A DNA stretch of 64,000 nucleotides. Source: Cliona cf. orientalis (lineage: Eukaryota; Porifera; Demospongiae; Clionaida; Clionaidae). The notes beneath the pieces are model-generated. The model ran no database searches. It saw only the letters and a program-made list of their open reading frames with translations, and was not told the origin of the DNA. The position numbers and the translations under genes were made by a program. How positions within the stretch are numbered: position 1 is the stretch's first letter; each line of letters starts with the position of its first letter. The DNA lies in contig OZ005689.1 in assembly GCA_963930775.1 (NCBI GenBank), forward strand, positions 5,704,001-5,768,000, read 5' to 3'. Positions 32,486 to 60,156 of the stretch are shown here, piece after piece.

Positions 32486-32670
32486 ATGAAAGCAAGGTAA
32501 ACGAAGAGATGCATAGTCTAGCTACGGCCCACGCTATTTACAACTTCAAGATATGAATTCACTAATTATGTATTTCACTGCATTGTAGAGAAATGCTGGT
32601 TATTCTAGTGGTGTCTGTATTGCTGTGTGTCTGCAGTACTGCAACAGCTGTCCCTCTGGATGAGGATGGG
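32486..32670 (+). other. Collagen exons 1-2: signal peptide
   Basis: Exon 1 is 32486-32496 and exon 2 is 32589-32670. Together they read [20 protein letters not shown] followed by [11 protein letters not shown], a typical secretory leader. A second in-frame ATG five codons on, in exon 2 (MLVIL), could also serve as start; either keeps the leader. Confidence 0.8.
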
Positions 32671-59600: not shown

Positions 59601-60156
59601 TCCTCACTCCTCCTTCCTTTTCTCCTTCCATAACCTAGCTGTCATTCAACAAGAATTTCAATTCCAAATTAAGCCATAGTTACGTACATCATACCTCCTC
59701 CTGATGGCTTCAATTATTGTGCAAATTATGTAAACAGAAGTGGATTGTACAAAAATACGCTTTTTTGTTGCTTCCTGTGCAGTTACCAATGAAGTTTAAG
59801 CCACATTCTTCTTCTCTCTTCACACACATGCACTCACACACACACACACACACACACACATACATACGCACGCACACACACACACGCATGCACACACACG
59901 CACACACACACAGAATCCTAGTGCATTGCCACTTTCATCACCAGACTCCTGTCTCTCAACTGTACAAGGACGCTCCTACATCACATGCTCGGCCGAGTCG
60001 AGATCATGTGACCTTAGTGACAGTGATGTGGGCGGAGACTTCCTGTTGGCCATGGACAGGGGGAGGGAATTACCCGCTGGAGCAGATGAGGTCACTGTTA
60101 CGAGTGACAGAGAGGCGCTCACGAAACTCAGTCGCTGCAATGTCTGCATGAAATGA
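32486..60156 (+). CDS. Collagen IV-type long collagen with NC1 domain (49 exons)
   Basis: Forty-nine exons followed by GT/AG borders and phase give one frame of 5,685 nt, 1,894 aa. Order: signal peptide (exons 1-2), a charged helical segment without Cys (exon 3), a Gly-X-Y domain of about 1,580 aa with short interruptions (exons 4-48), and a C-terminal NC1 domain (exons 48-49). The two C4 repeats are recognisable by SRCSVCE and SRCNVCMK. Length and interruptions fit basement-membrane type IV collagen rather than the short-chain spongins, which share the NC1 fold. Such chains are secreted, trimerise through NC1 and build sheet networks. Introns hold many repeats. Exon lists are given in the part entries below. 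The intron between exons 2 and 3 is 6.6 kb and might hide further exons. Paralogue assignment (IV versus spongin family) needs a tree. Confidence 0.9.
32830..33040. mobile_element. Foldback MITE family B, copy 2 (211 bp)
   Basis: It has the same length and layout as 22881-23091, with termini TACCGTATAGTGGGAAA and its reverse complement, and differs at a modest number of positions. Confidence 0.85.
35161..35320. repeat. Two-copy tandem repeat, 84-bp period
   Basis: The words ccaagcagatactatttggt, ccgacaataataat/ccaacaataataat and caatctgcttct repeat with a period of about 84 bp. Confidence 0.7.
35352..36180. repeat. Tandem duplication of a block of about 400-450 bp
   Basis: 35352-35812 and 35815-36180 share gcatctgggact, aaggca/aggtaat..cactg, taaatgccctgggtac or taaaggccctgggtatg, acattccagctgtg, caacatcaaagccattgta, cacccccagccacaaactatgct and cagtggggttgctgtgtactacaaatgca in the same order. 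It is non-coding. Confidence 0.8.
37205..37500 (+). mobile_element. tRNA-derived SINE, copy 1
   Basis: The head is tRNA-like with an A box (TGGCCGAGTGGTTAA) and a B box (GAGTTCGAGTCCCAC). The body is ggcacttttctttcctttccctggagtc ... catccttc ... gatgtaaagcc ... tctccaggc ... gtggcaaatacaaa. Copy 2 at 58389-58620 shares this order. Confidence 0.75.
38031..38180. repeat. Two-copy tandem repeat, 81-bp period
   Basis: The word ctccacctagtccagagg starts at 38041 and 38122, and gatcggtaaccatgg follows in both copies. Confidence 0.8.
39284..39505 (+). other. Collagen exon 3: charged helical N-terminal domain
   Basis: Its 222 nt, phase 0 at both ends, encode 74 residues ([20 protein letters not shown] ... 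[17 protein letters not shown]), rich in Glu, Arg and Leu with heptad-like spacing and no Cys. It replaces the Cys/Lys-rich 7S region of vertebrate collagen IV. Its role, probably coiled-coil trimerisation, is inference. Confidence 0.7.
39983..40084. repeat. (TC)n microsatellite
   Basis: About 50 TC units end 25 bp before collagen exon 4 and act in effect as an extended pyrimidine tract before its acceptor. Confidence 0.95.
40388..40821. mobile_element. Foldback MITE family C (434 bp)
   Basis: The termini are TACCGTAAACTCTGGTTATT and its near-perfect reverse complement at the right end. The sub-terminal word ttaagcgca is repeated many times in both orientations. It lies in collagen intron 5. 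Confidence 0.85.
42150..42313. mobile_element. Foldback MITE family A, copy 1 (164 bp)
   Basis: It has perfect 19-bp terminal inverted repeats TACCGTGTTTATGCTAATA. The interior carries gacaacctttaccagaaaat. Related copies in the other orientation are at 51479-51655 and 55518-55628. Confidence 0.85.
46064..46262. mobile_element. Foldback MITE family E (about 199 bp)
   Basis: Left end TACCGTAGATCGGAA; right end TCCCGATCTACATGTATGGTA read inwards, so the inverted repeat is interrupted by a few bases. The interior has paired cgtcg and gcgaaaat words. It lies in collagen intron 19. Confidence 0.6.
49083..49365. repeat. Minisatellite of about 40 bp in collagen intron 31
   Basis: Six to seven degenerate units are built on ttttgctagacattgtccggcagagagtata. 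A minus-strand frame across it is just the repeat. Confidence 0.8.
49831..50030. repeat. Long inverted repeat with hammerhead-ribozyme-like core (Penelope-like element remnant)
   Basis: Arms 49851-49932 and 49943-50025 are near-perfect reverse complements around a 10-nt spacer. Each arm carries GATGA, a CTAGA/TCTAG stem and CGAAACGTC, the order of the conserved hammerhead parts (GAUGA, helix II, GAAA, cleavage-site GUC). The usual CU before GAUGA is replaced by AG. Hammerhead motifs of this kind are known from the terminal repeats of Penelope-like retroelements. No reverse transcriptase is present. Confidence 0.55.
51479..51655. mobile_element. Foldback MITE family A, copy 2
   Basis: Its ends are a slightly altered ctgccttgtttatgctaata and tattagcataaacacggta. 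The interior holds ttttctggtataggtcgatcgtcac, the reverse orientation of copy 1. Confidence 0.75.
51740..51900. repeat. GA-rich low-complexity tract
   Basis: The purine-rich (GA/GGGA)n includes a duplicated ggggatagagtggaagaaagt. Similar tracts lie at 44820-44890 and 46880-47035, all in collagen introns. Confidence 0.85.
54367..54870 (+). repeat. Four-copy tandem repeat that includes an exon end and its splice donor
   Basis: The word atcccgggatttccaggtgc starts at 54367 (the real end of exon 42 plus its GT), 54506, 54619 and 54737. Each is followed by aatgaa-ttaaacttttaaaac, catgcaacca and cttcctactaatcctta. Periods are 139, 113 and 118 bp. Three extra copies of the donor therefore sit in intron 42. 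Confidence 0.9.
55518..55628. mobile_element. Foldback MITE family A, copy 3 (truncated)
   Basis: It starts taccatgtttatgctaatagaatgcaag and carries ttttctggtaaaggtcgtcac, but the right terminal repeat is missing. Confidence 0.65.
55876..56012. repeat. Second Penelope-like hammerhead-type inverted repeat
   Basis: It is a degenerate relative of 49831-50030: tgaaataaacgaagattctctg at the left, aacttgccgacgtttcgact inside, and the reverse complement of the left end at the right (cagataatcttcatttatttca). Only one arm keeps the CGAAACGTC core. It ends in tgcagatagcaactgagaac, the inverse of the sequence flanking the first copy. Confidence 0.5.
58389..58620 (+). mobile_element. tRNA-derived SINE, copy 2
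   Basis: The tRNA-like head (TGGCTGAGTGGTTAA; GAGTTCGAGTCCCAC) and the body ggcacttttctttcctttcc are shared with 37205-37500. It lies in collagen intron 47, just before exon 48. Confidence 0.75.
58645..60156 (+). other. Collagen exons 48-49: end of triple helix and NC1 (C4) domain
   Basis: Exon 48 is 58645-59180 and exon 49 is 59914-60156. NC1 is about residues 1688-1894. The first C4 repeat has [28 protein letters not shown] and SRCSVCE; the pair of cysteines found after CLRxF in vertebrate NC1 is missing. The second has [35 protein letters not shown] and SRCNVCMK, all six cysteines. The Met used for the sulfilimine cross-link in cnidarian and bilaterian collagen IV has no evident counterpart. 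The intron between the halves ends in a (CA)n tract. Confidence 0.85.
59836..59912. repeat. (CA)n microsatellite at the last collagen acceptor
   Basis: Imperfect (CA)n runs directly into the exon 49 acceptor (cacag/aat), so repeat length is part of the splice-site context. Confidence 0.9.

What the first reader, a model, noticed from the sequence alone, without database searches (positions are those of the whole stretch)
32486..60156. Complete long collagen IV-type chain in a probable demosponge
Forty-nine exons thread in one frame to 1,894 aa ending in a two-repeat NC1 domain. Established knowledge: demosponges are best known for short spongin-type collagens with an NC1-related domain, while canonical collagen IV was first described in homoscleromorph sponges. 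A full-length NC1 collagen here bears on the origin of basement membranes.
Basis: partly seen in the sequence, partly recalled or inferred. Interest (0 to 1): 0.85.

Follow-up and report, generated by a model that had tools for sequence, protein, structure and literature searches.

The report
Collagen IV-like gene in boring sponge
A marine boring sponge carries one complete long collagen gene with the tail domain typical of basement-membrane collagen IV, but without the known parts that link such chains into a basement membrane, which could help explain why these sponges lack that sheet.

Summary
I rebuilt 49 exons in one frame, 1,894 aa, at 32486-60156 (+). The C-terminus is a real tandem C4 (NC1) domain: Pfam C4, 1.1e-28. 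Exon 48 carries Gly-X-Y and NC1 repeat 1 in one open frame, and a scan of 48,000-58,645 found no in-phase rival signal-peptide start. It is the only C4 gene found in 217 Mb.

Split glycine codons and a junction exon point to collagen IV (criteria from PMC5395295), and the chain is not a short spongin. But it is not canonical: no 7S domain (a Cys-free helical segment instead), 5 helix interruptions, 10 of 12 NC1 cysteines, and aligned sulfilimine and chloride residues replaced. Collagen IV in demosponges is already in print, but one survey ties it, within Heteroscleromorpha, to freshwater (PMC6824150); this marine gene disagrees. I judge it a divergent homotrimeric collagen IV relative that trimerises at both ends but cannot build the known network. 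Expression and assembly are untested.

The parts
32486..32670 (+). E1 (32486-32496) and E2 (32589-32670): start codon and signal peptide ([19 protein letters not shown])
   Evidence: sequence, model; hydrophobicity 3.57 in my scale. The join to E3 across 6,613 bases is inferred from matching phase 0 only; chose other, low-scoring exons here
39284..39505 (+). E3: 74-residue Cys-free N-terminal domain, predicted long alpha helix, coiled-coil-like
   Evidence: AlphaFold2 single sequence: helix 15-65, mean pLDDT 84.3; no Pfam match outside Gly-X-Y; no second copy found in the genome
40109..52335 (+). E4-E38: 35 exons, all phase 0; 34 begin with a whole Gly codon (E38 begins with Ser)
52731..58186 (+). 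E39-E47: mostly larger exons; 6 of the 7 split-Gly junctions (E39/40, 40/41, 41/42, 42/43, 43/44, 45/46); the seventh is E47/48
56058..56332 (+). E44: carries the 26-residue helix break with an RVRR (furin-like) motif; an in-phase alternative donor after 56254 would remove the motif
   Evidence: cleavage and alternative splicing are inferred, not shown
58645..59180 (+). E48: junction exon, split Gly at its start, end of helix, NC1 repeat 1 and start of repeat 2
   Evidence: Pfam C4
59914..60156 (+). E49: rest of NC1 repeat 2 and stop; AATAAA or ATTAAA at 60437
   Evidence: the acceptor is a CA-repeat tract and scores weakly (-0.8)

Best explanation
This is the single NC1 (C4-C4) collagen gene found in a marine heteroscleromorph demosponge and a divergent relative of collagen IV. 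Shown by sequence: signal peptide, Cys-free N-terminal segment (predicted helical), 515 Gly-X-Y triplets with five breaks, tandem C4 domain. Inferred: three identical chains register through the NC1 domain, which by the recalled pairing keeps two disulfides in repeat 1 and three in repeat 2, and fold into a rod of about 1,550 residues that is also clamped at the N-terminus by a coiled coil. The known joining steps of basement-membrane collagen IV (7S tetramer, chloride-triggered NC1 hexamer, Met93-Lys211 sulfilimine bond) lack their residues here, so the rod should assemble by another route, for example lateral packing with lysyl-oxidase cross-links, and not as a basement-membrane network.
For: Pfam C4 1.1e-28, two stretches; 13 solved sequences match, all collagen IV NC1, best single-domain chain 3.5e-25. 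Repeat 1 groups with repeat 1, repeat 2 with repeat 2 of human and fly chains (91/100, not starred, long window branches). Ten Cys fall on canonical positions, none extra; C65, C71 missing; R76K, D78S, M93S, E175T, R179S, N187S, Y189G, K211T. [quoted passage not shown] Only C4 gene found in the genome. E3 helix. Lysyl oxidase matches present (5).
Against: No transcript data. The N-terminal join crosses 6.6 kb and the chaining script did not choose it. NC1 identity to human alpha-1 is only 31.5% over 200 aligned residues, and alignment in the gapped segments is uncertain, so single-residue calls (most of all 175-211) may shift. The AlphaFold model of the NC1 piece failed (mean pLDDT 30.0). Loss of sulfilimine residues is not special to this gene: PMC5395295 reports it for ctenophores. 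PMC6527180 says both its sponge chains lack group 1 chloride residues in one sentence and speaks of them in sponges in another; it finds the switch residues missing only in the calcareous sponge. Only three chains from two animals (human, fly) were aligned, so lineage-wide sponge loss cannot be told from loss in this gene.
Confidence: 0.66

Rival explanations
1. It is an ordinary functional collagen IV that builds a cryptic basement-membrane-like layer in Cliona, with diverged but working assembly sites.
For: Long chain plus tandem C4 domain; laminin N-terminal domain matches (7) and peroxidase matches (34) occur in the genome; PMC7385117 says basement-membrane genes of Ephydatia, type IV collagen among them, are expressed in a pattern that fits development of polarised epithelia (passage).
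Against: No 7S cysteines, C65-C71 pair deleted, sulfilimine and chloride residues replaced; no partner chain found; G2F (nidogen) gave no match, though without a positive control.
Confidence: 0.15
2. It is a spongin-type chain that gained a long helix (or spongin is a shortened descendant of chains like this), and belongs with the spongin family rather than collagen IV.
For: HSQ is not exact in either repeat (HSR, HSM) and 2 collagen IV Cys are missing; PMC5395295 says spongins lack HSQ and four collagen IV Cys; no other C4 gene was found in this genome.
Against: 2 of 12 Cys are lost and there is no extra Cys, whereas PMC5395295 gives spongins four losses and three extra (passage; which positions I could not read). 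515 triplets is not a short helix.
Confidence: 0.12
3. Two genes read as one: an upstream Gly-X-Y collagen (E1-E38) and a downstream NC1 collagen (E39-E49).
For: Exon style changes at E39 from mostly small phase-0 exons to mostly larger exons with split Gly.
Against: Phases and Gly register run through; introns 37-39 are 172, 395 and 252 bases, with no room for an end domain and a new promoter; 1 signal-peptide-like ATG among 241 on the + strand of 48,000-58,645, not joining in phase, against 3 of 185 on the - strand.
Confidence: 0.05

Closest known systems
Collagen IV (COL4; human alpha-1(IV) and Drosophila NC1 chains compared here)
   Same: Tandem C4 NC1 at the C-terminus, C4 order, 10 Cys positions, long helix, split-Gly codons, helix/NC1 junction exon
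   Different: No 7S domain, N-terminal helical segment instead, 5 interruptions (about 20 recalled for human chains), C65-C71 loop deleted, sulfilimine and chloride residues replaced, no partner gene found
Spongin short-chain collagens
   Same: NC1 collagens homologous to collagen IV; no exact HSQ
   Different: Spongins have a short helix, lose four collagen IV Cys and gain three (PMC5395295, passage); here two lost, none gained, 515 triplets
Fibrillar-type collagen stretches of the same genome (C9, L034-L037)
   Same: Whole-Gly phase-0 exons, many of 45 and 54 bases
   Different: Sizes 45/54/99/108/162: 29 of 30, 19 of 26 and 17 of 20 whole-Gly runs in the three control stretches (counts) against 19 of 44 here; at most 2 weak split-Gly candidates there; no COLFI match on C1
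Collagen IV reported for other demosponges (Spongilla, Ircinia, Chondrilla, Ephydatia, keratose and verongimorph groups)
   Same: Demosponge NC1 collagen

Membership tests
Collagen IV | Tandem C4 domains (NC1) at the C-terminus | tested here: met
   Pfam C4 100.1 bits, 2 stretches; repeats pair off by position, 91/100
Collagen IV | Twelve NC1 cysteines | tested here: not met
   10 of 12; C65 and C71 deleted
Collagen IV | HSQ motifs in NC1 | tested here: not met
   HSR and HSM
Collagen IV | N-terminal 7S domain with cysteines | tested here: not met
   Cys only at 17 and 19 (signal peptide), 1578 (helix) and ten in NC1; definition of 7S recalled; holds if E1-E3 are the true N-terminus
Collagen IV | Long helix with many interruptions | tested here: inconclusive
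   Long (515 triplets) but 5 interruptions only
Collagen IV | Split-Gly codons and helix/NC1 junction exon | tested here: met
   7 split-Gly junctions; E48 begins with one and holds the junction; criterion from PMC5395295
Collagen IV | Met93 and Lys211 (sulfilimine; absent in ctenophores too) | tested here: not met
   S and T at the aligned positions
Collagen IV | Chloride switch Arg76, Asp/Glu78, Glu175 | tested here: not met
   K, S, T; residues named in PMC6527180, where a calcareous sponge chain also lacks the switch
Collagen IV | Paired genes head to head | tested here: not met
   No second C4 gene found in the genome
Spongin short-chain collagen | Short collagenous domain | tested here: not met
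   515 triplets
Spongin short-chain collagen | Four collagen IV Cys absent, three spongin-specific Cys | tested here: not met
   Two absent, none extra; counts from PMC5395295, positions not seen
Spongin short-chain collagen | Position in an NC1 tree | not testable with these tools
Fibrillar collagen | COLFI C-terminal domain | tested here: not met
   Pfam of the C-terminal 208 aa gives C4 only; the 29 COLFI matches at E <= 0.001 lie on C2, C5, C9, C17 and C18, none on C1

The most novel reading that the evidence does not exclude
One gene, two collagens: full-length chains serve as a long collagen IV-like rod, while furin-type cleavage at RVRR in the 26-residue break (in transcripts that keep it; splicing at the donor after 56254 would remove it) releases a 521-residue C-terminal piece of about 98 triplets plus NC1, the build of a spongin short chain. 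That would make this gene a model for how spongins arose from collagen IV, in a genome where no separate C4 gene was found.
Probability: 0.06. Interest if true: 0.82.

Novelty: new variant of a known kind. Interest (0 to 1): 0.55.

Why it matters
Whether demosponges have collagen IV is disputed: PMC5395295 says they lack it and a basement membrane; others report it, and PMC6824150 ties it within Heteroscleromorpha to freshwater. A complete single gene in a marine heteroscleromorph answers the presence question for this species and shifts it to function: the gene persists while the residues for network assembly are missing. It gives a direct test of whether the lack of a basement membrane in these sponges reflects changed NC1 and N-terminal chemistry rather than gene loss.

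Tried and rejected
First chaining run with strict splice thresholds gave a wrong 45-exon path; loosened. One search chose other 5' exons (32637-32670, 36805-36861, 38051-38103, 39099-39121, 39228-39505, scores 1.1-6.7) and left the NC1 frame; I rejected these because a clear signal-peptide exon and an in-phase E3 exist and because the NC1 frame matches Pfam C4. Separate short NC1 gene: rejected on the signal-peptide scan and intron sizes (scan limited to 48,000-58,645). My first split-Gly control was faulty, since it missed the window's own split exons; one search replaced it: window 40001-58640 gave 7 hits, 6 of them true splits with acceptor scores 3.1-6.2 and one (-0.9) an internal interruption, E48 lying outside the stretch; controls 0 of 32, 2 of 29 (weak, -0.8 and -2.0) and 0 of 21. 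AlphaFold of the NC1 piece gave nothing usable. Nidogen G2F search: no match, no positive control, so no conclusion. A likeness of the phase change at E39 to that in human COL4A1/COL4A5 (near exon 19) is recalled and was not verified; I do not rest on it. The 18S family search did not complete.

Full report
What was checked. The finding claims a 49-exon, 1,894-aa NC1 collagen at 32486-60156 (+). One search shows Gly-X-Y runs on the + strand through 40-59 kb and four short mirror runs on the - strand there. Of the 49 exons, 42 are in the script's path (E1 with its start imposed) and 7 were set by hand.

Whose genome. The window lies on C1 of a 216.8-Mb genome. The mitochondrial contig is 19,633 bases with a demosponge-like gene set (gene naming by eye, recalled). 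Of seven contigs whose length one search returned, six are long: 37.50, 14.80, 11.96, 9.89, 7.98 and 7.22 Mb. They equal chromosomes 1, 2, 3, 9, 16 and 19 of Cliona cf. orientalis odCliOrie1.1, whose mitochondrial genome is 19.63 kb (PMC12639293, abstract and passages). The published span is 217.17 Mb in 307 scaffolds; here 149 contigs are held. It is a marine heteroscleromorph demosponge, not a homoscleromorph.

Anatomy. E1-E2 encode a signal peptide. E3 encodes 74 Cys-free residues that AlphaFold predicts as a long helix (single sequence, mean pLDDT 84.3), with 9 of 14 a/d positions hydrophobic in the best heptad registers. The helix runs from residue 106 to 1686 with 515 triplets and five breaks (three where one residue sits between two Gly, one of 4 and one of 26 residues). 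NC1 fills the last 208 residues. Thirteen Cys: two in the signal peptide, one in the helix, ten in NC1.

NC1 identity. Pfam C4 scores 100.1 bits, 1.1e-28, in two stretches. Thirteen solved sequences match, all collagen IV NC1 by name. In an eight-row tree of single repeats, window repeat 1 falls with repeat 1 and repeat 2 with repeat 2 of human and fly chains, support 91/100, with long window branches and no starred fork. Identity to human alpha-1 is 31.5% over 200 positions. Aligned to human numbering, Cys 65 and 71 are deleted with their loop; Arg76, Asp78, Met93, Glu175, Arg179, Asn187, Tyr189 and Lys211 are replaced. Residue roles are from PMC6527180 and PMC5395295 (passages); the disulfide pairing, and the deleted loop being a swapped hairpin in solved NC1 trimers, are recalled. 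PMC6527180 finds the switch residues in at least one chain of every species except the calcareous sponge, so the change here is not simply a trait of all sponges; its sentences on group 1 residues in sponges do not agree with each other.

Gene structure. E4-E38 are all phase 0 and 34 of these 35 exons begin with a whole Gly codon; E39-E48 are mostly larger and hold seven split-Gly junctions, the last at the start of the helix/NC1 junction exon. [quoted passage not shown] Three fibrillar-type stretches on C9 of the same genome serve as control: 29 of 30, 19 of 26 and 17 of 20 whole-Gly runs have sizes 45, 54, 99, 108 or 162 (counted; size set recalled), against 19 of 44 exons here. By a corrected rule the controls give 0 of 32, 2 of 29 (weak acceptors) and 0 of 21 split-Gly starts.

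One gene or two. Introns between E4 and E48 number 44, all under 1 kb. One signal-peptide-like ATG was found among 241 ATGs on the + strand of 48,000-58,645, not joining in phase; the - strand control gave 3 of 185. The 6.6-kb intron 2 remains unproven.

Genome context. C4 searches at E 0.001 and 10 and a protein search with the NC1 itself find only this gene. No spongin was available as a positive control, so absence of spongin is likely but not shown. No second copy of E3 was found. Laminin N-terminal domains (7 matches), peroxidases (34) and lysyl oxidase (5) are present; nidogen G2F gave none, without a positive control. No head-to-head partner was found. Of seven neighbouring frames given to Pfam, the upstream ones with a match are MeaB-type and DEAD-box genes and a reverse-transcriptase fragment on the - strand.

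What is in print. PMC5395295: demosponges lack collagen IV (passages). PMC5867623: type IV collagen found in Spongilla, Ircinia and Chondrilla (passage). PMC7385117: gene present in Ephydatia. PMC6824150: present in keratose and verongimorph sponges, within Heteroscleromorpha associated with fresh water (passages). PMC12586988: a type IV collagen basement membrane only in Homoscleromorpha and Calcarea (passage). PMC5560861: a C4-C4 collagen in the filasterean Ministeria. The listings of searches show no description of a Cliona NC1 collagen; subscription papers and supplements were not searched, and the Ensembl annotation of this assembly probably holds a model of the gene.

Reading. The chain is related to collagen IV by NC1 homology and gene structure but fails several defining features, so I file it as a divergent variant, not as a canonical member. 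Its likely assembly is a homotrimer clamped at both ends. Without 7S, chloride and sulfilimine residues it should not form the known network. Those last steps are inference.

Noticed in passing
window 1-5301 and 8543-12538 (+): Two similar long single-exon frames with many 'ITIEASEFHNNSA'-like repeats and a multi-pass membrane-like C-terminal part, in tandem; the first runs off the window's start.
   Followed up: no
window 56254 and 56332: Two in-phase donors for E44 (scores 2.1 and 2.8); use of the first would drop 26 residues and with them an RVRR furin-like motif.
   Followed up: partly
window 41321-58186 (protein residues 180-1620): Eleven N-glycosylation sequons inside the Gly-X-Y region (9 NGT, 2 NGS), plus one NAS in E3.
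   Followed up: no
G000:C111:18100-19440: A second COX1 match on another contig with the same score as on C149, perhaps a second mitochondrial assembly or a nuclear copy.
   Followed up: no
window 24864-29756 (-) and 62640-63050 (-): Neighbours: DEAD-box helicase with SPB4-type C-terminal extension, MeaB-type GTPase exons, Ets-domain exon.
   Followed up: partly
window 16431-16949 (-): Reverse-transcriptase fragment (Pfam RVT_1, 5e-11).
   Followed up: no
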